Under the pieces are notes generated by a model that did no database searches, was not told the origin of the DNA, and saw only the letters and a list, made by a program, of their open reading frames with translations. 10,749 nt of DNA from assembly GCA_030042755.1 (NCBI GenBank), contig JASHZC010000218.1, positions 1 through 10,749 of the forward strand. The letters are read 5' to 3'. Numbering within the stretch: the first letter of the stretch is position 1; each line of letters begins with the position of its first letter. Source of the DNA: Vulcanimicrobiota bacterium. GTDB taxonomy: Bacteria > Eremiobacterota > Eremiobacteria > Baltobacterales > Baltobacteraceae. A program made the translations under genes and the position numbers. Below are positions 1 to 10,749 of this stretch, piece after piece.

Positions 1-239
1 AAGGGGCGAGTGAACGCTTCGATTTCCGCGTCACTCCTAGCGTTGCGAATAACGTCGAGCAGCCGTTCGTGATTCATGCCTAGAAAACGGAACACCGCTT
101 GATCCATCCCGCAGTTATAGTGGTACTCGCCGATGTTGCCGCGAGCCGCGGCCTTCCCCTTATCGACTGTGCGCCCTAGCTGAACGACGCCTTGCCACTT
201 GTCTTGCACGCTTCGCGGATACTCTTTGGTCAGATCCAT
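1..239 (-). CDS. DUF5069 domain protein, 3' end cut by window edge
   Basis: The reading frame is open from an ATG at 239 to the left edge and gives 79 residues without a stop. It starts MDLTKEYPRS and contains the pattern LGRTVDKGKA, then GEYHYNCGMDQAVFRFLGM. This matches my memory of the N-terminal half of DUF5069 proteins, whose function is unknown: a short MDLTK.. leader, a 'aRtiDKarA' segment and a 'Y.ycp.D..vf.flg' segment. A Shine-Dalgarno AGGAGT lies 6 bases before the ATG, which supports the start. The family is usually about 130-150 residues long, so roughly half is missing. The gene is divergent from the regulator at 359 and shares a 119-base intergenic region with it. Neither a role nor a link to the downstream operon can be deduced. 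The family call rests on remembered pattern, not a search. Confidence 0.8.
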   Translation of the reverse strand, partial: MDLTKEYPRSVQDKWQGVVQLGRTVDKGKAAARGNIGEYHYNCGMDQAVFRFLGMNHERLLDVIRNARSDAEIEAFTRP

Positions 240-358
240 CTCAACACTCCTTGGGATTGGTATGTGCGCGCTACGACACCGTTTGCTGGGCGGTAGTTTC
301 GCGCTTCGGGTTTCATACGAGGCTAGTGGCGCGGCGGAGGCGAAGCCGCGAATAGAGA
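240..358. promoter_or_regulatory. Divergent intergenic region with a GC-rich hairpin
   Basis: These 119 bases must hold the promoters of both the DUF5069 gene and the XRE/STAND regulator. I see no convincing -35/-10 pair. A small inverted repeat, CGCGGC (330-335) and GCCGCG (345-350), encloses the 9-base loop GGAGGCGAA. The loop contains a Shine-Dalgarno-like GGAGG that is 18 bases from the GTG at 359, too far for normal use. An in-frame TAG at 353 rules out an earlier start. The hairpin may affect regulator translation, but this is only inference. Confidence 0.3.
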
Positions 359-2833
359 GTGAAAGCCCTCGGTCATCGATCCTTCGGGGATCTCTTGCGC
401 CAGTACCGCGTAAACGCCGGCATGACTCAGGAAGCGCTTGCCGAGCGCGCGCGGATTAGCCTTGCGGCTATCGGCAAGCTCGAGCGCGGCGCGCGTCAGC
501 GGCCTTATCGCGCCACCATCGCCCTGCTTGCGGACGCGCTGTCTCTGACCCGAGACGATCGCGTGGAACTCGAGCGCGCGGCCAGCCGTGCCATGCCCGG
601 CGTTTCCGAGATGCCTCAACGGGCCGGTCCGGCGATTAGCCTACCGATCTATTTTTCCAGCTTTGTCGGACGCGAACGAGATCTTGCTAACGTTCAAGAA
701 ATGCTGGCGACTCATCGTTTCGTTACGCTCGTCGGCGCGGGAGGCGTCGGTAAGACCCGCCTTGGGCTGCGTGCCGCAGAGCATTTCATCACGTCGCCGA
801 GCGGCCGAGACTTCGATGGCCTCTGGTTCGTTGATCTCTCGTCGGTCACCGACGAGGGGATGGTGGAGACGGCGCTTGCTTCGGCTATTGTAGGTGCCGA
901 TCAGTGCCGAACGCTTGACGATCTCGTCGCGTATCTGCGCTCTCGAAAGTTCTTGCTGATTCTCGACAACTGCGAGCACTTGCTCGACCCGATCGCACAT
1001 GCTTCCAAAGCACTCATGTCCGGTTGCCCAGGCGCTCGAATCTTGGCCACGAGCCGGCAGCCGCTTTCCTTAGACGGTGAGCGGATCTACCGCGTTCCGC
1101 CCTTGAGCCTTCCGCCGAGCGAGGCGCTGACGGCGAGCGAGGCGGTGAAGTTCGATGCGGTCAGGCTGTTCGAGGATCGTGCCCGCGCCACGGATAGCCA
1201 CTTTGAGTTGATCGACTCGGTAATTCCCGCCGTCATTGAAATCTGTCAGAGGGCGGATGGTATCGCGCTGGCCATCGAGCTTGCCGCAGCCCGCGTGAGC
1301 GCGTTCTCTCCTGCCGATATCGCCCAACAGATTGGCGAGCATCTTTCGCTCCTGTCCGGCGGAGTTCGAACATCTCTTCCGCGGCACAAGACGATGCGCG
1401 CCCTGTTTGACTGGAGCTACGACCTGCTCGACGATCGCGAGCGCGAACTCTTTCGCCGTTTATCGGTGTTCGCGAGCGGGTTTTGGCTCGATCTCGCGAG
1501 CGCGCTCTACCCCGGGGAGAAGCAAAAGCGCGAAGTTCCGCGCATACTCGCATCGCTCGTAGACAAATCCTTCGTCCAATGCGAGATCCATGCCGGACCC
1601 CGTTATCGATTGCTGGAGCCGGCTCGCCAATATGCGCGCGAGAAGCTTCGCGATCGCGGAGAATACGACGCGGCGGCGCGATCGCACGCGATCGCCCTGG
1701 TCACTCTAGCGGAGGATTTCGATTCGAAACTGGAGCTGATTTCGGATCACGTCTGGGATCAGTATATCCAACGCGAAGGTAACAACTTTCGCGCCGCCTT
1801 CGAGTGGACGCTCGGCCCACACGGGGACGCAGCGCTCGGGCAGCGCTTGGCCGCATCGCGGACCGCGACCTGGAGTGGATTCGGATCGGGTGAAGTGCGC
1901 AAATGGCTGGATGCCGCATTCAAAACCTGTTCCGAGACAACGCCGCCTTGGGTCATGGCAAAGCTGGCGATCAGCGCGGCGCGAACTGCCGTCCATTTTG
2001 AACTCGATCCTCAGGCAAGGCTCGACGCGTGTCGGCACGCACTGGCGCTTCAGCAGCCGGACGATTTTCGCGGCAGGGCAACGGCGCAGTGCTACCTTGG
2101 GTTAGCACTCGGATATATGGGCCGCTTCGCTGAGGCGGAGGGCGCGCTTCGCGAGGCGCGCGCGACTGCACGTTCTGCCGGTGCGCGAATCGAATACAAC
2201 CTTGCGACCACTGCATTGGGCGAGGCACGTTCCTTGGGCGGGGATTTACGGGAAGCTCGTGAGCTCATTTTAGAAGCGTTGCGGCGCAGTGAAGCAGCGG
2301 GATCTGAGCGGGGCGCCGCGGGTTCGCGCGTGTCGCTCGCCGAGATCGAATTCGCCTCGGGTTTAGTCGAAGAGGCGCTGCGGTTAAACGAAAGATCTGC
2401 GCAATTCTTTCGATCTCATTCGGATCTGGTTCGACTTTCGACCACGCTTTGCAATTCGGCGGCGTACCTCATAGCGCTGGGCCGCTATCAGGAAGCCCGA
2501 AAGGACGCACGCGAAGCGTTACGCTCTTTACGCGGAATTGGAAGTGTCAACGCTGCACTTTGGGCGATGCAGCATCTCGCTGCCATCGCTATTTTGCGCA
2601 GCGAGCCGGGCAGAAGGGATGCGATGCTCCACCGTGCAGCCAAGCTTCTCGGTTTTGTCGATGAAGCGACGAGGCAACGATCGAAATCTCGTTCCTATGC
2701 GGAACAACAGACCTATGAAAAGGCGCTCTCCGCCTTGCGCGAATTGTTTGGAGAAGATGAGCTGGCAGAGCTCATGACCGCCGGGAAAGCGTGGCCGGAG
2801 GATTTGGCCCTGGCCGAAGCCCTCGCACTCTAA
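359..2833 (+). CDS. XRE-family regulator with STAND ATPase and TPR-like C-terminus
   Basis: An 824-residue one-component regulator. Residues 8-65 form an XRE/Cro-type helix-turn-helix (MTQEALAERARIS, then IGKLERGARQRP). Residues 100-330 are a STAND/NB-ARC-type ATPase. They show the FVGRE entry motif (102-106), Walker A GAGGVGKT (126-133), Walker B FLLILDN (198-204), ATSR (230-233), and GIALAIELAAAR (301-312), where the usual GxP proline is alanine. A winged-helix segment (about 343-430, RALFDWSYDLLDDRERELFRRLSVF) leads to TPR-like helical repeats (about 560-750). The C-terminal tail (LLGFVDEA ... YEKALSALRELFG) is typical of this regulator class. Such proteins are thought to sense a ligand or partner through the helical part and switch by ATP. 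The GTG start is the first after an in-frame TAG and keeps the HTH whole; its ribosome site is weak. The gene lies directly upstream of the 2964-6694 operon on the same strand, its likely target. Confidence 0.88.
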   Translation: MKALGHRSFGDLLRQYRVNAGMTQEALAERARISLAAIGKLERGARQRPYRATIALLADALSLTRDDRVELERAASRAMPGVSEMPQRAGPAISLPIYFSSFVGRERDLANVQEMLATHRFVTLVGAGGVGKTRLGLRAAEHFITSPSGRDFDGLWFVDLSSVTDEGMVETALASAIVGADQCRTLDDLVAYLRSRKFLLILDNCEHLLDPIAHASKALMSGCPGARILATSRQPLSLDGERIYRVPPLSLPPSEALTASEAVKFDAVRLFEDRARATDSHFELIDSVIPAVIEICQRADGIALAIELAAARVSAFSPADIAQQIGEHLSLLSGGVRTSLPRHKTMRALFDWSYDLLDDRERELFRRLSVFASGFWLDLASALYPGEKQKREVPRILASLVDKSFVQCEIHAGPRYRLLEPARQYAREKLRDRGEYDAAARSHAIALVTLAEDFDSKLELISDHVWDQYIQREGNNFRAAFEWTLGPHGDAALGQRLAASRTATWSGFGSGEVRKWLDAAFKTCSETTPPWVMAKLAISAARTAVHFELDPQARLDACRHALALQQPDDFRGRATAQCYLGLALGYMGRFAEAEGALREARATARSAGARIEYNLATTALGEARSLGGDLREARELILEALRRSEAAGSERGAAGSRVSLAEIEFASGLVEEALRLNERSAQFFRSHSDLVRLSTTLCNSAAYLIALGRYQEARKDAREALRSLRGIGSVNAALWAMQHLAAIAILRSEPGRRDAMLHRAAKLLGFVDEATRQRSKSRSYAEQQTYEKALSALRELFGEDELAELMTAGKAWPEDLALAEALAL

Positions 2834-2875
2834 CAGGAGGATGGCCCGGTCAGCGCTGGGCGCCTGGCGGCCGCA

Positions 2876-2894
2876 ACTGTACTCCCTACTGTAC
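2876..2894. repeat. ACTGTAC direct repeat between regulator and operon
   Basis: Two perfect copies of ACTGTAC lie at 2876-2882 and 2888-2894, a 12-base period, in the 130-base gap between the regulator stop and the hydrolase start. Each copy contains the palindrome GTAC. The position makes it a candidate binding site for the upstream XRE-type regulator, but a 7-base repeat can arise by chance. No clear promoter hexamers are visible next to it. Confidence 0.3.
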
Positions 2895-2963
2895 CTGGTG
2901 TCTCTTTTCCGGGGCCTTCTGCTCGCGCTACCATCGCGCTTATCATCATCTACGGAGGCTACC

Positions 2964-3665
2964 ATGCAAGAAAAGAGTATCGTTCTCGTCCACGGAGGAT
3001 TCGTCGACGGATCAGGTTGGGAAGGCGTGTACAAGATCCTTAGGCACCGCGGCTACGACGTCGTCGTCGTTCAAAACCCAACCGTAAGTCTGGCCGACGA
3101 CGTGGCCGTCACGCGGCGCGCGATCGATAGCGCGGCGAACGACGTAATCCTAGTGGGGCACTCCTATGGAGGCGCAGTCGTTACGGAGGCCGGGACCGAT
3201 CCGAAGGTGTCCGCCCTGGTCTACGTCGCGGCATTCGCGCCCGACGCAGGAGAATCGGTTTCTGGGTTACTCGCACATCCGGCGCCGGGGGCGCCCGTTC
3301 CGCCGATTCTGCCGCCGAAGGACGGATTTCTCATGCTCGACAAAGCAAAGTTCGCAGCATCATTCGCGGCCGACGTCGATCCGGAAGTGGCTGCGTTCAT
3401 GGCAGCGTCCCAGGTTCCATGGGGGCTTGCGGCGCTCAACGGAACGGTTTCCAAGCCGGCTTGGAAGAGCAAGACAAGTTGGTATCTTCTCACGACCGAA
3501 GACAGGATGATCCCTCCAAGCGTTCAGATGTTCATGGCTAAACGTGCGAACGCCGAGATCACGGAAACGGCGGGAAGTCACGCGATTTACGTATCAAAAC
3601 CGGATGTGGTCGCGCAAATCATCGAGGACGCTGCAACCGCGAGTGTCGCTGCGGCAGCTCGCTAA
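2964..3665 (+). CDS. Alpha/beta-fold hydrolase
   Basis: A 233-residue serine hydrolase of the alpha/beta fold, most like the small esterase group related to plant salicylate/MeSA esterases (AB_hydrolase_6 type). Visible elements are the oxyanion HGG (10-12), the nucleophile elbow GHSYGG with Ser67, the probable acid Asp180 in TTEDRMIP, and the catalytic His206 in AGSHAIYVSKPD. Family length and spacing are normal. The ATG at 2964 has a strong ACGGAGG site 6 bases upstream. A longer in-frame start at 2841 abuts an AGGAGG with no spacing and would add 41 residues with a hydrophobic stretch, so it is less likely. It is the first gene of the operon, 15 bases before the SnoaL-like gene. It probably cleaves an ester or a related small molecule in the cytoplasm; the substrate is unknown. 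Confidence 0.88.
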   Translation: MQEKSIVLVHGGFVDGSGWEGVYKILRHRGYDVVVVQNPTVSLADDVAVTRRAIDSAANDVILVGHSYGGAVVTEAGTDPKVSALVYVAAFAPDAGESVSGLLAHPAPGAPVPPILPPKDGFLMLDKAKFAASFAADVDPEVAAFMAASQVPWGLAALNGTVSKPAWKSKTSWYLLTTEDRMIPPSVQMFMAKRANAEITETAGSHAIYVSKPDVVAQIIEDAATASVAAAAR

Positions 3666-3680
3666 TGATGGGGGTTCATC

Positions 3681-4115
3681 GTGGACACCGTTGCAGTTAA
3701 CATTCGTACCTTCGACGATCTTGACTTCCACGTCTTCTCCGATCAGGCGTGGGATGAGCTTGGAGAAAGCCACGCCGAGCACATCATCGTGCACTGGCCC
3801 GACGGGCATTCCACAACCGGGATAGAGCAGCACATCGAGGATTTAAAGGCAATGTTCGTGTATGCCCCTGACACCCGGATCAAACTCCACCCGGTGAAGT
3901 TCGGTTCGGGGGAATGGACATGCGTCATCGGCGTAATGGAAGGAACCTTTACGAAACCAATGCCGACGGGAAACGGAAAAACCATCGCTCCAACGGGGAA
4001 GGCGTTCAAATTGCCCATGTGCACGGTGGGCCGCTGGAATGACGATGGAGTGATGGAAGAGGAATATCTGTTCTGGGACAACGCGACGTACATGAAACAG
4101 GTCGGCGTGGAATAG
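3681..4115 (+). CDS. SnoaL/NTF2-like ester-cyclase-type protein
   Basis: A 144-residue protein with the cone-shaped alpha+beta barrel pattern of the NTF2/SnoaL superfamily. Early helices are followed by VHWPDGHSTTGIEQHIEDLK, then alternating strands ending in VMEEEYLFWDNATYMKQVGV. The last part is the familiar 'G.i.E.w.fwD...f..QlG' tail of SnoaL-like ester cyclases. Members range from polyketide cyclases to ketosteroid-isomerase-like enzymes and non-catalytic binders, so chemistry cannot be assigned. The GTG start has a GGGGG site (3670-3674) 6 bases upstream. The gene begins 15 bases after the hydrolase stop and ends 3 bases before the amidohydrolase start, so translation is probably coupled. 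Family assignment is firm; function is not. Confidence 0.85.
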   Translation: MDTVAVNIRTFDDLDFHVFSDQAWDELGESHAEHIIVHWPDGHSTTGIEQHIEDLKAMFVYAPDTRIKLHPVKFGSGEWTCVIGVMEGTFTKPMPTGNGKTIAPTGKAFKLPMCTVGRWNDDGVMEEEYLFWDNATYMKQVGVE

Positions 4116-4118
4116 CCG

Positions 4119-5087
4119 ATGGGCGTCCATCCGGCGACCGAACCGGCGGCGATCGATACTCACCTCCACTTTTTTCCGCCGGAATATCAAAAACTCTGGC
4201 TTGACTACGAGGACGCTCGCAAACAGCCGCACTTCCCCAGCCAGGTCGCCTGGACGCCCGGTCGGATGATCGAGGAGATGGACCGTCATGGCGTTCGCAC
4301 GGGAGTCCTGTCCCTCGCCTCGACGCCCGGCGTGTGGTTCGATCTGGGCGCCGACGCCGCCGGCCAGATAGCCCGCGGCTGCAACGACTATGCGGCCGAA
4401 ATGGTGCGCGGCAATCCGAAACGCTTTGGCCTCTTCGCCGCCCTGTCGATGTTGGACATCGATGCCACGCTCAAGGAAATTGAATATGCCTTCGGCGCGC
4501 TGAACGCCGATGGGGTCGGGTTGCAAAGCAACTATGGCGACAAATGGCTCGGCGATCCGGCGTACAAACCGGTGCTTGAGGAACTGAACCGTCGGAAGGC
4601 GGTCGCCTACGTCCATCCGCTGGTTGCGACGTGCTGTAGCGGCTTGGGCGTCGGAGCGGCTCCGGCGGTCATCGAGGTGCCGCACGACACCACGCGAACC
4701 GTGACGAGCCTCCTGCTGCATGGCTCGTTTGCCAAATTTCGCGACATAACGTGGCTCTTCTCACACGCCGGCGGCACGATTCCCATGATGGCGGGGCGGA
4801 TTAACGCCTTCTACGGTTCGCGGCCAGACCTGACGGAATTCGCGCCTCAGGGAATCGAGGGCGAATTTCGCCGGCTTCACTACGACACCGCGAACGCGAC
4901 ATCTCCGCCCTCGATGGCCGCGTTGATGAAGCTCGTGCCGATCTCTCAGATTACTTACGGCACCGACTACCCGTATTTCGGTTTCGACCAATTCGACAAT
5001 CTGCAAAAACTTGGATTATCTGCTGCAGAGCTCGCGGCGATCGGCCATGAGAACGCGTCGCGCCTCATTCCGCGCTTGCGCCACTAA
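4119..5087 (+). CDS. Amidohydrolase family 2, ACMSD-like decarboxylase
   Basis: A 322-residue TIM-barrel metal enzyme of the amidohydrolase-2 (PF04909) group, which includes ACMSD, gamma-resorcylate decarboxylase and 6-methylsalicylate decarboxylase. The expected metal ligands are present: HxH at His15/His17 (DTHLHFFPP), His166 (VAYVHPLV), His216 ([16 protein letters not shown]) and Asp283 (YGTDYPY). Segments such as [22 protein letters not shown] and [12 protein letters not shown] are typical of the aromatic-acid decarboxylase branch. The known chemistry of that branch is non-oxidative decarboxylation of an aromatic or muconate-type acid using one divalent metal. Some relatives are hydrolases, so the reaction is inferred. 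The ATG follows the previous stop by 3 bases with only a weak ribosome site, suggesting coupling. The exporter gene follows after 14 bases. Confidence 0.88.
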
Positions 5088-5101
5088 TCGAGCGTAGCGA
5101 G

Positions 5102-6694
5102 GTGGCGCTAAAGGCTTCGCCGTGGGTTCCGTTTCGCTATCGCATGTTTGCCATCGTCTGGGGCGCTACCGTCGTATCGAATATTGGGGGCTGGATGTAC
5201 TCGGCGGCCGCGGGTTGGCTGATGACCGACCTTACCAAGAGCGCATTCGTCGTTTCACTTGTTTCGGCCGCCAACAGCCTGCCGATGTTCATGTTTGCGC
5301 TCCTCGCCGGCGTCCTCACGGATACCGTGAACAAACGGCGCTTTCTCATCACAGGTGAGGTCGCCACCGCGATCCTGTCCGCCCTGTTAGCCGCAATCGT
5401 TTTGTTCGGTCGAGCGACTCCCGAGTCGCTTTTGTTGTTGCTCTTTTTGGTCGGTGTTGCCGGCGCGCTCACCTCTCCTGCGTGGCAGGCGGTCGTTCCG
5501 GAGCTGGTTCCTAAGGAAGCTCTTCCGCCTGCCGTCGCCATGAACAGTGTCGGCGTTAACGTCAGCAGAGCGGTCGGCCCAGCCCTAGCCGGTGCAATGA
5601 TCCGTCCCTTCGGGATCGCCTCGCCCTTCATCGTGAACGCCGTGAGCAACTTCGGCGTGATTGCTGCGTTGATTTGGTGGCGCGAACCAGAACCAGCGCC
5701 GAGCACACTGCCCGTCGAACGATTCGGCAGTGCACTTCGAGTTGGCGTACGCTACGCTATGAATAACCCGAGTCTGCGCGCGACACTCGGGCGTTCGGTC
5801 GCGTTCTTTCTGTTTGCCAGCACGTACTGGGCGTTACTGCCGCTGGTCGCGCGCGAGCGCATCAGCGGTGGGGCGGCGATCTATGGCGCGCTCTTGGCTG
5901 CCATCGGCCTCGGTGCCGTCATCGGCGCCTTTTTCATCCCTCGCTGGAAGGCGGAGATCGGCCCGGACAAGCTCGTCGCGGCGGCGACGCTCGGAACGGC
6001 ATGCGCTTTGGTGATCTTCGGCCTTGCGCGCGAACCGGTTACGGCACTGATCGCAAGCCTTATTGCGGGCGTCACTTGGATCGCCGCGATCGCTACGCTC
6101 AACGTCTCGGCGCAGCTTTCCCTGCCCGAATGGGTGCGTGGCCGAGGCCTAGCGATCTACATCACGATCCTCTTTGGCGCAATGACGGTCGGAAGCGCGG
6201 TCTGGGGCGAAGTTGCCGCCCTCACGAGCCTGCCTTTGGCGCACTTTGCTGCCGCTGCGCTCGCAACGCTGGCAATCCCGCTAACCCGGCGCTGGAAGTT
6301 GCAGCACGCCGCGACGCTCGATCTCACGCCTTCAATGCAATGGCCGGCACCGATCGTCTCGCAGGGCGTTGAAATCAGTCAGGGCCCGGTCCTCGTGACG
6401 GTGGAGTATCGGCTTGCCGAGGACCGAAAGCGTTCACCGTTTCTTGCTGCCATGCAAAGGTTGCGCCAAGAACGGCTGCGCGACGGTGCTGAAAGTTGGG
6501 GCATCTTCGAAGACACCGCTCAACCGGGGAGATTCTTGGAAACGTTTCTCATCGACTCGTGGGTCGAACACATGCGCCAACACGAGCGGGTGACGGAGAC
6601 GGACTCTCTGCTACAGCGCCAGATTCGCGAGTGTCTCGCCGAGGAACCGAAGGTGACGCACTTCGTCACCCCCGCGCCAACGCAAGGTATCTGA
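5102..6694 (+). CDS. MFS_3-family transporter with fused C-terminal soluble domain
   Basis: A 530-residue inner-membrane protein. Residues 15-400 hold about 12 hydrophobic segments with the MFS motif-A region GVLTDTVNKRR (70-80), and resemble the MFS_3 / EntS-like exporter group (PF05977). Residues about 428-522 form a soluble domain (LVTVEYRLA, then SWGIFEDTAQPGRFLETFLI, SWVEHMRQHERVT) like an antibiotic-biosynthesis-monooxygenase ferredoxin-like fold. I recall this tail in many long MFS_3 proteins, so the fusion is a family trait rather than a local event. The GTG start has an AGCGAGG-like site almost adjacent; the next Met at residue 15 would cut into helix 1. As the last gene of the operon it probably exports the substrate or product of the neighbouring enzymes. 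It ends 3 bases from the convergent serine hydrolase, and no terminator hairpin is seen between them. Confidence 0.9.
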   Translation: MALKASPWVPFRYRMFAIVWGATVVSNIGGWMYSAAAGWLMTDLTKSAFVVSLVSAANSLPMFMFALLAGVLTDTVNKRRFLITGEVATAILSALLAAIVLFGRATPESLLLLLFLVGVAGALTSPAWQAVVPELVPKEALPPAVAMNSVGVNVSRAVGPALAGAMIRPFGIASPFIVNAVSNFGVIAALIWWREPEPAPSTLPVERFGSALRVGVRYAMNNPSLRATLGRSVAFFLFASTYWALLPLVARERISGGAAIYGALLAAIGLGAVIGAFFIPRWKAEIGPDKLVAAATLGTACALVIFGLAREPVTALIASLIAGVTWIAAIATLNVSAQLSLPEWVRGRGLAIYITILFGAMTVGSAVWGEVAALTSLPLAHFAAAALATLAIPLTRRWKLQHAATLDLTPSMQWPAPIVSQGVEISQGPVLVTVEYRLAEDRKRSPFLAAMQRLRQERLRDGAESWGIFEDTAQPGRFLETFLIDSWVEHMRQHERVTETDSLLQRQIRECLAEEPKVTHFVTPAPTQGI

Positions 6695-6697
6695 CGC

Positions 6698-8029
6698 TCA
6701 TGACGGCGACGACAACGGTGACACGGTGTAGGCTTGGTCGAGAACTTTCAACATCAGAGTGTTGGCAGTCGGAAGCTCGTCGAGGTCCACCGTTAGATTG
6801 GTCCACACGATCAAGGTCACCTTATTAACGGGATCGTAGCCGATGAATGAATTGTAACCCGCCGTTTCGCCGCCGTGATAGTACATGGAGTTTGATCCCC
6901 AGCGCAGGAGCGTGATGCCGTATCCGTACGCTTGGCCGTCGGGCTTGTACGGATCTTCGGGGCGCGGGCTGTCAAGCCAGAGCCGCTGATACTGTGCATT
7001 GAAGACGCGGCCGGAGACCAATGCCCGGATCCACGTTTCCATGTCGCGGGCGTCGGAGTTGGCGGCCCCGGCGGCCCACGAAAACGAATGATTCAGGCTT
7101 GTGTAGTCCTTCGGCAGCAGCGTCCCAGCGTGGGCCGCAGCCTTGATTGCGGGCGAGTATGGCGGCTCGCCGACAAAGGCGACTGAAGCACTGCCGTATA
7201 GATATCCGTGGGAGAACGGCGTGCGGAGCGTGTTCACGTTCCTCGATGGCAATAGAGTGTGCCGCATCCCAAGCGGTCCGAACAAGCGATCCTGCATTTC
7301 CGTCGCCAACGTCTTGTGATCGACCTTTTCAATGATGAGGCCCAGCAGCACGTAGTTGGTATTGTTGTATTCGTAGCTTGTGTCCGGCGGGGAATTGGGT
7401 GGACGCGAAAGCCCAATAGCCAGCAATTCCGCTGGAGTCCAAACTCTGCTAGGGTCGTGGTCGGCACTCTTCGAGAGCAGCGGATCGTTAAGGTAGTTGT
7501 AGAGGCCGCTGCGCATGTCCAACAGTTCGGCGATCGTAATGTTCTTGCCATTGGGTACGCCTGCGACGTACTTTGAGACCGGATCGCTGAACTTGAGTTT
7601 GTGTCCTTGCGCGAGTTGCACGATCACCGCGGCGGTCATCGTCTTCGTGCACGAAGCGATTCGAAAGTAGGTGTTAGTAGTCGGCACGCTCGTCGTGCCG
7701 AGTTTCGTGGTGCCGTAGGTGGCCGTAAACTCGCCTTGGGGGGTGCGCAGGAGTATCACGGCGCCGGGAATCAGGAGCCTTCGAGCCGTCGCGGCCAACA
7801 TCGTTTGGAGCGCAGCCTGACTAATCGGCTTGAGCGCGCCCGTGGCCGTTGACGACACCGGCGTGGATGAGCTCGCGCCAGCGCATACGATCAGCAAGGC
7901 GATGCTAAACAACAGGAAGACATTTGGTAGAGGTGGGGGGACGCGAACTCCCCACCCCTTACATGCGAGGTGATTCGGGCACGAAGCGCCGGTTTCACAA
8001 GAAAGGCCCCAAAAACGCGAAAAAACCAT
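6698..8029 (-). CDS. Class-C beta-lactamase-like serine hydrolase
   Basis: A 443-residue protein of the beta-lactamase/transpeptidase-like family (PF00144). Visible motifs are SxxK as SCTK (126-129), the Tyr motif YNN (221-223) and the KTG-equivalent HGG (385-387). ITIAELLDMRSGLYNYLND and LFGPLGMRHTLLP are typical of this family, which includes esterases, D-amino-acid peptidases and carboxypeptidases. A hydrophobic segment at 37-50 (VFLLFSIALLIVCA) indicates export. The chosen ATG at 8029 has AAGGG 9 bases upstream. Residues 21-35, however, are translated from a degenerate tRNA-Ala 3' half (7925-7969), which is not ancestral coding sequence. The frame is also open to 8083. A TTG at 7912 would give 404 residues starting at the signal peptide and may be the original start. 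The body is certain; the N-terminus is not. The gene may have lost its native promoter or start to an integration event. Confidence 0.82.
   Translation of the reverse strand: MVFSRFWGLSCETGASCPNHLACKGWGVRVPPPLPNVFLLFSIALLIVCAGASSSTPVSSTATGALKPISQAALQTMLAATARRLLIPGAVILLRTPQGEFTATYGTTKLGTTSVPTTNTYFRIASCTKTMTAAVIVQLAQGHKLKFSDPVSKYVAGVPNGKNITIAELLDMRSGLYNYLNDPLLSKSADHDPSRVWTPAELLAIGLSRPPNSPPDTSYEYNNTNYVLLGLIIEKVDHKTLATEMQDRLFGPLGMRHTLLPSRNVNTLRTPFSHGYLYGSASVAFVGEPPYSPAIKAAAHAGTLLPKDYTSLNHSFSWAAGAANSDARDMETWIRALVSGRVFNAQYQRLWLDSPRPEDPYKPDGQAYGYGITLLRWGSNSMYYHGGETAGYNSFIGYDPVNKVTLIVWTNLTVDLDELPTANTLMLKVLDQAYTVSPLSSPS
7925..7970 (-). other. Degenerate tRNA-Ala(CGC) 3' half, putative att site 1
   Basis: Read on the minus strand, this begins in the anticodon loop (C, T33, anticodon CGC at 7967-7965, A37). 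It continues with standard tRNA spacing: GTAAG, a 5-base variable region, GGGAG, T-loop TTCGCGT, CCCCC, CACCTCT, A73 and CCA. T70 fits the alanine G3:U70 identity pair. The canonical A58 is C, T-stem pair 52:62 is mismatched, and the 5' anticodon-stem strand does not fully pair. No D-arm or 5' acceptor strand follows, so it is not a functional tRNA. Displaced tRNA 3' ends like this mark chromosomal junctions of tRNA-targeting integrative elements. Confidence 0.72.
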
Positions 8030-8096
8030 AGACACCGACCCTTTAGATAGCTTGTCGTTCCAATGGTTTCGACGGCTTTCCAAGCTTTTCCAGAAG

Positions 8097-8118
8097 AATG
8101 GTCGTCAAATGGTCGTCA
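8097..8118. repeat. Tandem 11-bp repeat, candidate integrase arm sites (site 1)
   Basis: Two perfect tandem copies of AATGGTCGTCA (8097-8107 and 8108-8118), one helical turn each, begin 132 bases from the anticodon of the tRNA half at 7925. The wider block 8077-8121 aligns without gaps to 10038-10082, at the same position relative to the second tRNA half, with about 28 of 45 bases identical by eye. Tandem direct repeats of 10-11 bases at fixed distance from a core are known arm-type binding sites of tyrosine integrases; that role here is inference. A further imperfect match, GCTTGTCGTTC, lies at 8050-8060. Confidence 0.5.
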
Positions 8119-8206
8119 GGCGCCCGATCGGAACACTGACGGGTCTCGGGTGTGTTTAGACATGCCTCGCGTCAACCACACGACTTTGGAATCCAATAGG
8201 CGAAAT

Positions 8207-8236
8207 TTGACAGGCTCGGCAGGGCGCTGATATGGT
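8207..8236 (+). promoter_or_regulatory. Sigma70-type promoter of the VOC-MarR operon
   Basis: A perfect -35 TTGACA (8207-8212) is followed after 18 bases by TATGGT (8231-8236), matching 4 of 6 bases of the -10 consensus. Transcription would start near 8243, about 30 bases before the VOC start codon. The -10 box touches the MarR-type palindrome at 8236-8252, so binding there would block polymerase. Confidence 0.7.
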
Positions 8237-8252
8237 TAGTTAGCCTAACTAA
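8236..8252. promoter_or_regulatory. Palindromic MarR-type operator
   Basis: TTAGTTAG-C-CTAACTAA is a perfect 17-base palindrome with 8-base half-sites around one central base. It overlaps the last base of the -10 box and the probable start point. This TAGTTAG/CTAACTA type of dyad and its placement are typical of MarR-family operators. The only DNA-binding protein in the operon is the MarR homologue at 8621, so autorepression is the natural inference. Confidence 0.78.
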
Positions 8253-8274
8253 TTACAGGGAGACCATTCTAACG

Positions 8275-8634
8275 ATGCTTACTACCACGGGCCTGTCCTT
8301 CGTGATGCTGGGCGCCGCCGATGTCGACGGCACGGCGAGTTTCTACCGCGAGACGCTCGGCTTGACCATGAGCGCGCGCTTTGAAGACTTTGCCTTTTTC
8401 GATGCGGGCGGCGTGACGCTCGCCCTCAGCGGCGACCTCGCCAGGCGAACCCCGCCGTCACCGTCGGAAACGTGCGAGTTCGCCTTCGGCGTCGTGAGCG
8501 TCGCCGCGGCGTACCAAACGCTGCGCGACCAGGTCGCGTTCGTGAACCAACCCCACCAGGTCAACGCCGAAAACTGGGCAGTCAGCTTTCACGATCCCGA
8601 AGGACATCTGCTTTCGTTGTATGGCCCGCAATAG
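8275..8634 (+). CDS. VOC-family (glyoxalase/bleomycin-resistance-like) protein
   Basis: A 119-residue single vicinal-oxygen-chelate domain protein. The N-terminal half shows the beta-alpha-beta pattern VMLGAADVDGTASFYRETLGL, and the C-terminal half ends WAVSFHDPEGHLLSLYGP. Members act as small-molecule-binding resistance proteins or as metal-dependent lyases, dioxygenases or isomerases. Two usual metal ligands seem absent: no His in the first strand (LSFVML), and Ser where many relatives have Glu after DPxGHLL. A binding or resistance role is therefore more likely than metal catalysis. The ATG at 8275 follows AGGGAGA by about 11 bases. The gene overlaps the MarR gene by 14 bases and is first in an operon with its own promoter and operator, suggesting induction by a toxic ligand that also releases MarR. 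Confidence 0.88.
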   Translation: MLTTTGLSFVMLGAADVDGTASFYRETLGLTMSARFEDFAFFDAGGVTLALSGDLARRTPPSPSETCEFAFGVVSVAAAYQTLRDQVAFVNQPHQVNAENWAVSFHDPEGHLLSLYGPQ

Positions 8635-9031
8635 GGCGGTTGCGGACCGGCTACATTCGATCGCGATTCGGATTCTACGTTATGCGCGTGAGACCGATCG
8701 CAAATCGGGGTTCGGCCCGGCTCGGCTCTCAGCGCTTTCGGTACTCGTCTACGGTGGGCCGTGCACGTTAGGAGAGCTCGCGCGGGCCGAACAGGTGACT
8801 GCGCCAACGATGACGCGCATCGTACAGGGCCTGGAAACCGATGGTTTGGCAGGGCGCGAGCCGTCACCGGACGACGCGCGCGCGTCGATCTTACGCGCGA
8901 CGGCAAAGGGAAGGAGTGCGCTCGAGCGCGTGCGCCAGGCGCGCTTACGCCGCATCGAAACCTTGCTGGAATCGGCAAGCGCCGATGACGTCGAACGCCT
9001 GCACGAAGCTCTCGATGCCGTATTTAGTTAG
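8621..9031 (+). CDS. MarR-family winged-helix repressor
   Basis: A 136-residue MarR regulator. Dimerisation helices (about 5-25 and 100-135) flank a winged helix. The HTH spans about 48-73 (CTLGELARAEQVTAPTMTRIVQGLE in pattern), followed by the wing REPSPDDARASILRATAKGR with the conserved Asp84/Asp85 and Arg87. The size is normal. The start ATG lies inside the end of the VOC gene, giving a 14-base overlap and probable translational coupling. It most likely binds the TTAGTTAGCCTAACTAA palindrome at 8236-8252 and represses both genes until a ligand, often a phenolic or other small toxic compound in this family, releases it. The operon sits on the segment bounded by tRNA halves, so it is plausible acquired cargo. 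Confidence 0.9.
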   Translation: MARNRAVADRLHSIAIRILRYARETDRKSGFGPARLSALSVLVYGGPCTLGELARAEQVTAPTMTRIVQGLETDGLAGREPSPDDARASILRATAKGRSALERVRQARLRRIETLLESASADDVERLHEALDAVFS

Positions 9032-9289
9032 CTTTGCTCTGGCGCCAAACGGGCATCCGCGGTCAGTAGCAAAGGTTCAAGAGCGCTCAAAACCTAGAAT
9101 TACGCTTCTGGCGTCGAGCACGCTCGATGTCGCGCTCTCGAAAAGCTGCCAGAGCTCCCCCGCCCACTGACAGAGAAGGCCGGGGTTCCCAAGATTCGTG
9201 CCCTGCGCAATCCAAGTAGGCGGTACGGCAAGGGAGGTCCCGCGCGGCACCGTCGAAGATGCCTTCAGGGTCGAGATTGCTCATAGCTT
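9032..9289. other. Intergenic region with inverted repeats, no clear gene
   Basis: These 258 bases follow the MarR stop. CTTTGCT (9032-9038) can pair with AGCAAAG (9068-9074) across a 29-base loop, but no T-run follows, so it is a poor terminator. A perfect inverted repeat TCGAGC-AC-GCTCGA lies at 9114-9127. On the minus strand a frame from GTG 9250 to TGA 9077 (57 residues) reads like protein but has no ATG or ribosome site. I see no promoter hexamers for the gene at 9290. Confidence 0.3.
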
Positions 9290-9820
9290 ATGATGAAGAA
9301 ACGCGCGTCAATCGTGACTCTTGCCGCTGTCGTCATTGGACTCGCGGCCCTGCCTGCCGTGGCTCGCACGATCTCTGCGACCGCCGCACCGAGCCAGGGC
9401 CCGATTCAAATCTCAGCTTGCCGTGCGACGTACGATTCAGACCAGCTGGTCGTGTTGCTCGACTTCAAGAATGCCGGCGACAAGGTGGCGACGAGCATAG
9501 CTTTTTCGTTTACTGCCGAGGACGCCTTCGGGAAATCCCTGCGCTATCTCCAGGTGGCGAGGGCGGGCGAGGTCGCGCCGGGATCGGAAGTCGACAACTG
9601 GCTGGGCGCGAGCGTTTCCCTCCCCGGTCCTATCGGCTCCGATCTCACCGACGTGACATGTTCGGTCCAAACGGTCCATTTCAAAGGTGGCGGCGAGTGG
9701 CATGCCGAGGACGCGGAGTCGATGCCGGGTTATCCTCCGACGCCGAATCCTGATGGGACGCCGCGGGGCCTCCGCCTTGGCCGTGCTGATCATGTGACCC
9801 AGCAGCACATACGTACATAG
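9290..9820 (+). CDS. Secreted protein of unknown function
   Basis: A 176-residue protein with a clear signal peptide: MMKKR, a hydrophobic core (8-22) and a likely cleavage after LPAVA (residue 25). The mature part looks like an all-beta, immunoglobulin-like domain (QLVVLLDFKNAGDKVATSIAFSF is strand-rich, reminiscent of 'extracellular additive' repeats), with two cysteines, Cys44 and Cys124, that could form a disulphide. The tail after about residue 145 is Pro-rich, then basic (RGLRLGRADHVTQQHIRT), and may be disordered or altered. Two ATG codons are adjacent (9290, 9293). No strong ribosome site is seen, AGGG at 9266 being too far away. I do not recognise the family. The gene is on the same strand as VOC-MarR but 258 bases away, and is the last gene before the second tRNA half. 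Confidence 0.72.
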   Translation: MMKKRASIVTLAAVVIGLAALPAVARTISATAAPSQGPIQISACRATYDSDQLVVLLDFKNAGDKVATSIAFSFTAEDAFGKSLRYLQVARAGEVAPGSEVDNWLGASVSLPGPIGSDLTDVTCSVQTVHFKGGGEWHAEDAESMPGYPPTPNPDGTPRGLRLGRADHVTQQHIRT

Positions 9821-9839
9821 ATTTCTCTGGCCTGAGCCC

Positions 9840-9877
9840 GCGAAGACCGCGTCGCAGATCTTTCGGACGCGTTTCGC
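9840..9877. terminator. Strong hairpin after the secreted-protein gene
   Basis: GCGAA + CGCGTC (9840-9844, 9848-9853) pair with GACGCG + TTCGC (9866-9871, 9873-9877), an 11-bp stem with a small internal loop and a 12-base loop. It starts 20 bases after the stop at 9820. The following bases, AAGTTTCTTGG, hold only a weak T-tract, so it may be a terminator or a structured end of the att region. Confidence 0.4.
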
Positions 9878-9885
9878 AAGTTTCT

Positions 9886-9934
9886 TGGTGGAGATGGGGG
9901 ACTGGAACCCCCGACCCCTTACATGCGAAGTAAA
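9886..9934 (-). other. Degenerate tRNA-Ala(CGC) 3' half, putative att site 2
   Basis: On the minus strand this reads TTTAC, loop TTCGCAT with anticodon CGC (9927-9925), GTAAG, a variable region GGGTC, GGGGG, TTCCAGT, CCCCC, then ATCTCC, A73 and CCA. The anticodon stem pairs in all 5 positions (one G:T) and the T-stem is perfect. The T-loop has C at position 57 and the acceptor strand is one base short. There is no recognisable D-arm or 5' acceptor strand upstream. It shares an identical 15-base block, 9914-9928, with the copy at 7954-7968. It is better preserved than site 1, hence probably younger. Confidence 0.75.
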
Positions 9935-10097
9935 CGCCGCTCGAAGCCTAGAGTGCGTACGAAACGCAGGGAATAGTCCATTTTTCTTGCTAGGTCAGGT
10001 TTGTCGACGCGGAATTGTCGTCCGCTAGCGTTCGCGATTTCCGCCAGCTTCCGCGTGAACTATCGTAAGATTGTCGTAAGGCCACCCAGCGCGCGAC
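9935..10097. other. Gene-free arm of att site 2
   Basis: This stretch links the second tRNA half to the next gene. It contains the candidate arm-type repeats and a further imperfect copy, AATTGTCGTCC (10013-10023). A minus-strand frame from about 10063 to the TAA at 9919-9921 is open for some 46 codons and ends inside the tRNA half, but it lacks a convincing start. The corresponding stretch beside site 1 does not keep a matching frame, so I do not call a gene. Confidence 0.35.
10058..10079. repeat. Tandem 11-bp repeat, candidate integrase arm sites (site 2)
   Basis: AACTATCGTAA (10058-10068) and GATTGTCGTAA (10069-10079) are imperfect tandem copies, beginning 133 bases from the anticodon of the second tRNA half. 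The first site has its tandem pair at 132 bases. The shared core is roughly TCGTMA. Same spacing, same 11-base period and same orientation argue for a conserved functional layout rather than chance. Confidence 0.45.
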
Positions 10098-10625
10098 TTA
10101 CCGCCGAACACAGAGACCCATCTCGTTGTATCGGAGGCCGGGGTGAATATGCGTAGGGCCTGACTCGACGATCGAGTACCCGTTCGCCGTCGGCGTAATT
10201 TTCTTCCGGACACCTGAATATGATGAGGTTTCAGAAAATTCGTTATTGAATTCGAGTAAAATGGACCGGTCCTTCCCTACAGTAAAGTAGGCCGCAGCGT
10301 AATCGCCCGGTCCACTGGTTCCAAGCATGATGTATTTGTCTATCTTGGGATCATAGCCGTAGTAATCTATGCCCACAGCTCCCTTTTCGGTATAGTGCAG
10401 CCACCCATCTTCCGGCGCCGACGTCACGACCGTCCACCTGGCGATTTCCGTCTTGCCGGTCGAGTACGTTATTTTCGAAGTACAAGCAAAGGTTCCGGAA
10501 AACCATGAGATTACGTTGAGATGATCGGCAGCGGAAGCTTCGGTCACGCCGGCATCGAGGGCGGGAGGCGTTAGGATCGGCGAAGTCACGGCCATGCTAA
10601 AAGCACAAAGCGCCACAATCCTCAT
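10098..10625 (-). CDS. Secreted beta-rich protein of unknown function
   Basis: A 175-residue protein starting at ATG 10625 (MRIVALCAFSMAV), with a signal peptide and likely cleavage near TEASA-AD (about residue 32). A GTG start at 10655 would add 10 residues and spoil the signal peptide; AAGG lies 10 bases before the ATG. The mature part is strand-rich: WFSGTFACTSKITY, then ARWTVVTSAPEDGWLHY, YYGYDPKIDKYIMLG and LLEFNNEF. It resembles a lipocalin-like or DUF1579-type small barrel. Cys48 and the C-terminal Cys172 could form a disulphide. I cannot name the family with certainty. Its start is 34 bases after the stop of the next gene on the same strand, so the two are probably co-transcribed. It lies on the element side of att site 2. 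Confidence 0.75.
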   Translation of the reverse strand: MRIVALCAFSMAVTSPILTPPALDAGVTEASAADHLNVISWFSGTFACTSKITYSTGKTEIARWTVVTSAPEDGWLHYTEKGAVGIDYYGYDPKIDKYIMLGTSGPGDYAAAYFTVGKDRSILLEFNNEFSETSSYSGVRKKITPTANGYSIVESGPTHIHPGLRYNEMGLCVRR

Positions 10626-10659
10626 TTGACGCGCTACCTTGAAGGTCGGCACCACCAGA

Positions 10660-10749
10660 TTACTGACCGGTATTCGGCAATACGCTGCGGGGCTGAAATT
10701 CGGGATCGCCGGTTTGCCACAAGACGAAGGCGAACCAATCTGCTTGGAG
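10660..10749 (-). CDS. C-terminal end of a gene running in from the right edge
   Basis: From the right edge the minus strand is open for 29 codons, ending at TAA 10662-10660. The residues (ADWFAFVLWQTGDPEFQPRS in pattern) look like genuine protein. The 'WF.FvL....DP' tail is reminiscent of the C-termini of some alpha/beta hydrolases and S9 peptidases, but this is too short for assignment. It is the probable upstream partner of the secreted-protein gene at 10625, with 34 bases between them. Confidence 0.5.
   Translation of the reverse strand, partial: LQADWFAFVLWQTGDPEFQPRSVLPNTGQ

What the first reader, a model, noticed from the sequence alone, without database searches (positions are those of the whole stretch)
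7925..9934. Two displaced tRNA-Ala(CGC) 3' halves in tandem define a 2-kb cassette
Both sites keep anticodon loop, variable region, T-arm, acceptor 3' strand and CCA in correct tRNA spacing, in the same orientation, with an identical 15-base block around the anticodon. Neither has a 5' half. Tyrosine integrases are known to use the anticodon-to-3'-end part of tRNA genes as core sites. Serial integration at one tRNA-Ala would leave such a row of halves, each closing a cargo unit. The unit between them is small and carries a resistance-like operon but no integrase, so it may be a cassette mobilised in trans.
Basis: partly seen in the sequence, partly recalled or inferred. Interest (0 to 1): 0.8.

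Follow-up and report, generated by a model that had tools for sequence, protein, structure and literature searches.

The report
Tandem mini-islands at an alanine tRNA
In a little-known soil bacterium of the phylum Eremiobacterota, short blocks of cargo genes lie in a row, each ending in a broken-off copy of the end of one alanine tRNA gene: the footprint of repeated insertion at that tRNA by DNA-inserting enzymes that the blocks themselves do not encode.

Summary
The halves lie on the minus strand (7925-7969, 9886-9929) and are closest to tRNA-Ala(CGC) among 39 tRNA sequences of two relatives. Among relatives, 31 of 37 such repeats lie at set distances from an alanine-tRNA-like core: about -150 at the far end of a unit, or about +115, inside the integrase gene where there is one (two marginal). 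They look like arm-type sites of tyrosine integrases. In a near-identical relative the unit right of copy 2 begins at the intact tRNA-Ala(CGC). Serial integration is well supported. Neither window unit has an integrase; nor was a whole one found in any of 22 units delimited here (441 bp to 14.5 kb, median about 3 kb). One such unit is 99.8% identical in two MAGs whose DNA before the tRNA matches at about 78-93%. Movement in trans is plausible, not shown; loss of the integrase after integration is nearly as likely. The kind is known (tandem accretion, cis-mobilizable elements); I found no report for Eremiobacterota.

The parts
7925..7969 (-). Core copy 1: displaced 3' half of tRNA-Ala(CGC), anticodon loop to CCA; far end (attR-like) of the 2-kb unit
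   Evidence: Sequence; closest to tRNA-Ala(CGC) among 39 tRNA sequences
8097..8118 (-). Arm repeat, type C: TGACGACCATTTGACGACCATT, two exact 11-bp direct repeats 149 bp upstream of core copy 1
   Evidence: (0.01 expected by chance in the window)
9886..9929 (-). Core copy 2: displaced 3' half of tRNA-Ala(CGC), one base short; proximal end of the 2-kb unit and far end of the next unit to the right
   Evidence: Sequence; 3' end of the Rfam tmRNA model matches 9886-9918 at 16.4 bits, below its gathering score of 47
10058..10079 (-). Arm repeat, type B: TTACGACAATCTTACGATAGTT, 150 bp upstream of core copy 2
   Evidence: 2 mismatches to the relatives' pattern
7970..9885 (.). Integrase-less cargo unit (core to core 1960 bp)
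   Evidence: No integrase match by tblastn or Pfam on its three ORFs scanned
8275..8634 (+). Cargo: VOC/glyoxalase-fold protein (PF00903)
8621..9031 (+). Cargo: MarR-family regulator (PF01047/PF12802), overlaps the VOC gene
8236..8252 (.). Palindrome TTAGTTAG-C-CTAACTAA before the VOC gene, candidate MarR operator (function inferred)
   Evidence: not found in the VOC-MarR loci of G019, G005 and G006
9290..9820 (+). Cargo: 176-aa protein, signal peptide by eye only, no Pfam family; 83% DNA-identical homologue in G062 with no core in the 19 kb fetched around it
9930..10749 (-). Far end of the next unit (type B), which runs off the window; in relative G015 it begins at the intact tRNA-Ala(CGC)
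10098..10655 (-). Cargo of the next unit: 185-aa protein, no Pfam family; most of it absent in G015 (window 10116-10557 missing there)
10660..10749 (-). 3' end of a prolyl oligopeptidase gene (PF00326/PF02897 in G015), placed by alignment to G015
6698..7912 (-). Serine hydrolase (beta-lactamase fold, PF00144); the first in-frame start codon behind the half, TTG at 7912, is 12 bases past the CCA end of copy 1; the open frame itself runs on through the half

Best explanation
The two halves are attachment sites left by successive site-specific integrations into one tRNA-Ala(CGC) gene that, by the relative G015, lies about 2.3 kb right of the window. Tyrosine integrases that target the anticodon loop-to-3'-end part of this tRNA insert a circle whose attachment site reads arm1 - core - arm2; afterwards the tRNA is whole again and the old 3' end, preceded by arm1, sits at the far end of the insert. 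Repetition gives a row of units. Two integrase clades with different 11-bp repeats use the same core; the window holds a type C unit (7970-9885) and the end of a type B unit (9930 onward). Both units are cargo only: no integrase, no arm2. Shown: halves, repeats at set distance from the core, the same arrangement in relatives, absence of integrase. Inferred: that the repeats bind the integrase arm domain; that type B and C far ends belong to the clades whose genes hold the matching repeat (no element was seen with both ends); the order of events; that such cargo-only units can be moved by an integrase made elsewhere (I put this step at about 0.5).
For: Halves match tRNA-Ala(CGC) best. Repeats: 2 in the window, 0.01 expected; in 149 Eremiobacterota genomes 39 hits against 1 for the reversed control; of 37 distinct occurrences in fetched relatives' loci, 17 have a core 149-151 bp downstream (one of them tRNA-Ala(TGC)-like), 14 a core 102-124 bp upstream (two marginal), 6 neither; 0.0003 of 3000 random 20-position checks reached that core score. 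Type C repeats are 97.4% identical pairwise, the spacer to the core 65.5% (seven sequences). In six loci a full-length integrase frame abuts the core, antisense, its C-terminus encoded by the core; PF00589 in all six, PF14659 in five. The repeat inside the gene is type C in one clade (L102/L172, 96% identical) and type B in another (L103/L107/L174, 66-77%); 43.5-48.4% between clades. Rows: G062 has the intact tRNA, then halves C, B and two more over 25.8 kb of one 1.7-Mb contig. G015 is 98-100% identical to window 10558-10749 and 9935-10115 and has the intact tRNA at the other end of that unit. G060 shares flank before the tRNA at 91-92% and diverges about 30 bp behind it.
Against: The window itself has no intact tRNA and no integrase; the link to the intact gene rests on a relative. 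No excised circle or integration was observed. The nine type B repeats are hardly better conserved than their spacer (78% vs 76%). Six of 37 repeat occurrences have no core at the expected distance, two of them at contig ends. The repeat behind the core lies in coding sequence, so its match to the clade may be mere gene kinship. Many relatives' contigs stop at the core, a repeat that short-read assembly handles badly, so a chimeric join at copy 2 in the window is not excluded. Several relatives keep C-terminal integrase fragments beside cores, which points to decay.
Confidence: 0.87

Rival explanations
1. Decay: each unit came in as a complete element with its own integrase and arm2, which were later deleted; the halves are scars and the units no longer move. 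(This is a rival to the trans-mobilisation step, not to serial integration.)
For: C-terminal integrase fragments lie next to cores in L076, L077, L078, L090, L092 and L109; 17 of 22 units match integrases, in the three best hits shown for each, only by the C-terminal part, much of it the core itself. A review describes such rows as integration, decay to a CIME, then new integration (PMC5704250 passage).
Against: A whole integrase was found in none of 22 units, although many units keep the repeats at set spacing; the integrase-less 4.3-kb unit of G011 is 99.84% identical in G006 while DNA before the tRNA of G011 matches G006 at about 78-93% in the best stretches.
Confidence: 0.45
2. Row made without integrase: homologous recombination or duplication between core repeats rearranged units.
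For: Cores of 44-45 bp with near identity exist in many copies and could support occasional recombination.
Against: Copies carry different arm families and different cargo; repeats stand before many cores, which duplication of the tRNA end alone would not give.
Confidence: 0.05
3. Chance resemblance, or tRNA fragments unrelated to integration (split tRNA, tRNA-derived regulatory RNA, retro-inserted tRNA pieces).
For: ARAGORN calls no tRNA here and the one Rfam match at a half is below its gathering score.
Against: Expected number of matches 0.00; repeats at set spacing; the same sites in many relatives, several beside integrases.
Confidence: 0.01

Closest known systems
ssrA genomic islands of Dehalococcoides (PMC3146451; passages seen)
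   Same: Tandem islands behind one RNA gene, each closed by a short direct repeat of the gene's 3' end; 16 islands with and 15 without the integration module, the latter proposed to be cis-mobilizable; integrase gene overlaps the att site.
   Different: tmRNA gene and a serine recombinase there; tRNA-Ala(CGC) and two clades of tyrosine integrase with 11-bp repeats here.
CIMEs and tandem accretion of ICE/IME (PMC5704250; passages seen; ICESt1 work recalled)
   Same: Elements that kept att sites but lost integration and transfer genes, stacked with others at one site.
   Different: CIMEs keep attL and attR; here the repeat behind the core (arm2), which I take for part of an attL, is missing from the cargo-only units. 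Conjugation genes were not searched for.
Additive island fGI-2 of Ca. Methylopumilus with recurring 20-bp ends of tRNA-Lys(CTT) (PMC10872708; passages seen)
   Same: Recurring copies of a tRNA 3' end mark variable cargo.
   Different: Only the tRNA end is described in the passages seen; no arms or integrase clades.
Tycheposons of Prochlorococcus (original paper recalled, not held; mentions seen)
   Same: tRNA-anchored, tyrosine recombinase, cargo exchange.
   Different: Given as 4-200 kb in the passage seen; other tRNAs; membership not tested.
Integron cassette arrays (recalled)
   Same: Rows of small units without recombinase, delimited by a recurring recombination site.
   Different: The recurring site is a tRNA 3' half with arm repeats; attC sites and integron integrases were not searched for.

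Membership tests
tRNA-targeting tyrosine-integrase element (integrated) | Boundary repeat equal to the 3' part of a tRNA gene | tested here: met
tRNA-targeting tyrosine-integrase element (integrated) | Intact tRNA at the other end of the row | tested here: met
   Met in relative G015, outside the window; not testable in the window's own contig
tRNA-targeting tyrosine-integrase element (integrated) | Arm-type repeats near the core | tested here: met
   Repeats present; binding by integrase not testable here
tRNA-targeting tyrosine-integrase element (integrated) | Integrase encoded in the element | tested here: not met
   Not found in 7970-9885 nor, beyond a C-terminal tail at the core, in the G015 unit
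CIME (cis-mobilizable element) | No integration or transfer genes | tested here: met
   No such Pfam family among the three ORFs of the unit; no integrase match
CIME (cis-mobilizable element) | Both att sites retained | tested here: inconclusive
   Core at both ends, arm1 present, arm2 absent
CIME (cis-mobilizable element) | Can be excised or transferred by an integrase acting from outside | not testable with these tools
   No reads; indirect hint from G006/G011
Integron cassette array | attC site and integron integrase | not tested
   No attC model was run
Tycheposon | Features of the original description | not tested
   Original paper not among the papers found

The most novel reading that the evidence does not exclude
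Eremiobacterota run an integron-like gene-cassette system built on a tRNA: small cargo-only units with one arm repeat and a tRNA-Ala(CGC) 3' half are stacked behind the tRNA and exchanged between species by tRNA-specific tyrosine integrases encoded on other, larger elements.
Probability: 0.3. Interest if true: 0.75.

Novelty: new member of a known kind. Interest (0 to 1): 0.5.

Why it matters
It gives a defined gene-acquisition site, with recognisable ends, for a phylum met here almost only as MAGs: the pattern arm repeat - 150 bp - tRNA half finds unit boundaries from sequence alone. It poses a testable question that holds for tRNA hot spots in general: are small cargo-only units dead remnants or cassettes that a distant integrase moves. 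If the latter, variable gene content behind this tRNA is acquired in packets of a few kb, as in integrons, by an unrelated enzyme.

Tried and rejected
Own-genome searches: no whole genome is held, so relatives had to stand in. Integrase relic in the window: tblastn with 7 query frames (one of them an overlapping false frame) and then 10 integrases on the unit gave nothing; the frame that encodes the integrase tail in relatives is shifted in copy 2 by the missing base (read by eye). Third half or arm in 1-7924: none at the thresholds used. Left flank as ancestral chromosome: not settled; its genes have relatives at different places. Searches scored only two candidate places per genome, so further matches may be missed. 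Phage origin: core and type C arm have no exact match in IMG/VR; the type B arm has one. Rfam hit nos_TCE at 9110-9164 is below gathering score and taken as chance. The first idea that the sequences before the cores were 3' ends of integrase genes (open frames to the core) was dropped: the integrase lies on the other side and strand; the conserved stretch is the arm. The repeat-conservation test is clear for type C (seven sequences) and for three B-like sequences of G111/G113 (91% vs 66%) but not for nine type B sequences (78% vs 76%). Before that count I grouped 19 of the 20 sequences of the B/C cluster by hand and left out L111, whose repeat is lost.
Full report
1. Observation. The halves lie on the minus strand: copy 1 at 7969->7925, copy 2 at 9929->9886. 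They share the 15-base block TCGCATGTAAGGGGT and run from the anticodon loop to CCA without a 5' half. Copy 2 is one base short. The repeat is the longest direct repeat listed for the window; a pattern for the half has 0.00 expected matches in shuffles, though as I wrote it it recovered copy 2 only. Among 39 tRNA sequences from two relatives, G015 and G062, both halves align best to tRNA-Ala(CGC): 33 and 40, next best 20 and 25. The 39 come from the 30 loci returned for 74 Rfam tRNA matches plus L076 and L128, so not every tRNA was compared.

2. Where it comes from. A pattern for the half in genome-contig hit 45 stretches: 38 titled Candidatus Eremiobacterota, 6 'bacterium', 1 'Actinomycetes bacterium'. 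The window's closest relative found is G015 (L029, JASHPI, isolate JOPF045): 100% over window 9935-10115 and 98% over 10558-10749. There the contig goes from the intact tRNA-Ala(CGC) (10960-11035, +) through a prolyl oligopeptidase gene to the type B arm and stops at the core. So the unit right of copy 2 is, in this relative, the one next to the intact tRNA. Window 10116-10557 is absent from G015, and no close match to window 1-7900 was found there. G060 shares 91-92% of two flank stretches before the tRNA (1.3 kb between them is missing) and diverges about 30 bp behind it.

3. Arms. Displaced halves in relatives fall into families by the 220 bp before them (41 upstream stretches, the window's two included; 20 in the B/C cluster, 6 in family A, the other 15 in groups of one or two). 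Types C and B each carry two tandem 11-bp direct repeats, TGACGACCATT and TTACGACAAT(T/C), at about -150 from the core; family A has a similar pair (TCCGCCATTgTTCCGCCAATT) at about -126. Window copy 1 is type C, copy 2 type B; these are the only two matches in the window (expected 0.01). In 149 genomes the arm pattern has 39 hits in 18 genomes against 1 for the reversed control. Of 37 distinct occurrences in relatives' loci, 17 lie 149-151 bp before a core, 14 lie 102-124 bp behind one (two marginal), 6 neither, two of these at contig ends. One of the 17 precedes a tRNA-Ala(TGC)-like core in G046. Not every half has a recognisable pair: in L111 and L078, for instance, it is lost or degenerate, and the ungrouped halves have other sequences. 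Type C repeats are 97.4% identical pairwise over seven sequences, their spacer 65.5%; for three B-like sequences 91% and 66%; for nine type B sequences 78% and 76%.

4. Integrases. In six relatives' loci a full-length tyrosine integrase frame abuts the core, antisense to the tRNA, its C-terminus (VEM...PYMR) encoded by the core (L081, L102, L103, L107, L172, L174; L103 contains two unknown residues, and in L081 and L103 the core is at a contig end). PF00589 is found in all six, PF14659 in five, not in L081. A repeat pair lies behind the core, inside the gene, in five of the six, not in L081: type C in the clade L102/L172, type B in L103/L107/L174; the clades are 43.5-48.4% identical. I infer from the repeat sequences that copy 1 and copy 2 are products of two integrase clades with one target; no element was seen with both ends.

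5. Rows and units. 101 of 149 genomes match the half pattern with up to 3 mismatches (its list of matches was cut short). In the 40 regions I then chose, mostly from genomes with two or more matches, 18 matches are intact genes and 41 lack a 5' half; 4 of the 41 are at contig ends and one (L095 17672) is probably chance. The clearest row is G062 on a 1.7-Mb contig: intact tRNA core at 779,587, then cores at 784,901 (C arm), 787,590 (B arm), 790,894 and 805,386. I delimited 22 units, the window's and G015's included (G015's far core is cut off by the contig end): 441 to 14,492 bp, median about 2,950, 20 of 22 under 5.4 kb. With ten integrases as queries none shows a whole integrase; 17 match by the C-terminal part alone (three best hits shown for each), 5 not at all, the window among them. 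The Pfam integrase search of genomes covers 16 of the 22 and lists none inside; G090 (2 units), G106, G107 and G130 were not in it, and for the window only predicted proteins were scanned. Bias: a unit is counted only if both cores lie on one contig, which favours small units; the six integrase-bearing loci show no far core within the 3.3 to 13.4 kb at hand.

6. Does it move without its own integrase? For: the integrase-less 4.3-kb unit of G011 (2140-6466 in L089) is 99.84% identical to contig G006:C24 from core to core, while the 20 kb before the core on the tRNA-side contig of G011 matches G006 at 78-93% in the best stretches over 240 bp, weaker and probably paralogous matches left out, and 91% in one stretch of a second region. 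Both MAGs carry 'palsa' isolate names, so a mis-binned contig could give the same picture. Against: integrase fragments beside cores, and the lack of arm2 in cargo-only units. I hold the two readings about even.

7. Cargo. 7970-9885 holds a VOC-MarR operon and a 176-aa protein without Pfam family. VOC-MarR DNA matches in G019, G005, G006 and G011 at 65-69%; no core was found in the regions fetched for G019 and G005 (contexts in G006 and G011 not examined). The 176-aa protein has an 83% homologue in G062, about 630 kb from the row. Six cargo proteins of other units were scanned: a prolyl oligopeptidase (G015), a sulfatase (G062), an alpha/beta hydrolase and a DUF3466 protein (G002), a DUF3466 protein and a TPR regulator (G011).

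8. Known systems. Dehalococcoides ssrA islands (passages) are the nearest in layout, 16 with and 15 without the integration module, but use a serine recombinase. The CIME concept (passages) fits apart from the missing arm2. Recurring tRNA-Lys ends in Methylopumilus (passages) are similar. Searches for Eremiobacterota with integrase and tRNA, and with mobile genetic element, listed 1 and 11 papers; none has this subject by title or the abstract lines shown (listings only, open-licence papers only). I file it as a new member of a known kind.

Noticed in passing
L242 998-1019 (IMGVR_UViG_3300021387_000156): The exact type B arm repeat TTACGACAATTTTACGACAATT (the only match in the viral collection) lies just before the start of a 395-aa gene with an Arm-DNA-bind_5 domain (PF17293); no PF00589 match and no tRNA nearby by Rfam. 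The repeat may be an arm motif shared by distant integrases.
   Followed up: partly
L184 6667-6861 (G046:C209): TGACCACAATTTGACCACAATT exactly 150 bp before a core that resembles tRNA-Ala(TGC), not CGC: same geometry at another tRNA.
   Followed up: partly
L097 8306-9386 (G055:C1 about 1,723,300): A type C arm, core, second arm and an integrase split over two frames lie 670 kb from the intact tRNA-Ala(CGC) on the same 2.79-Mb contig: secondary insertion or rearrangement.
   Followed up: partly
window 350-4098 against L129 (G060:C100): G060 matches the window at about 90% at 1-349, 3828-3904 and 4099-6678 but lacks the rest of this stretch (regulator, hydrolase), so the block is itself an insertion or deletion.
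   Followed up: no
window 6698-7924: The first in-frame start of the serine hydrolase behind the half is 12 bases past the CCA end of copy 1, and homologues match only from residue 25 of the stretch read from 7906; its start may have been cut or replaced at the core.
   Followed up: partly
L131 9841-13846 (G063:C59): The homologue of that serine hydrolase lies about 2 kb from a tRNA-Ser(TGA) with an integrase-domain gene beside it: possibly island cargo there too.
   Followed up: no
window 8236-8252: Perfect 8-bp inverted repeat TTAGTTAG-C-CTAACTAA before the VOC-MarR operon, a candidate operator; a narrow pattern did not find it in the VOC-MarR loci of G019, G005 and G006.
   Followed up: partly
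L098/L099 (G112:C6 1,476,300 and 1,546,365): A half with an integrase beside it on the far side lies 70 kb from the intact tRNA-Ala(CGC), same strand: perhaps one large element of another integrase type.
   Followed up: no
L089 about 5953-6085: A stretch of about 120 bp at the end of the TPR-regulator gene of the G011 unit recurs at 72-85% identity in many Eremiobacterota genomes: a shared protein segment or a dispersed repeat.
   Followed up: no
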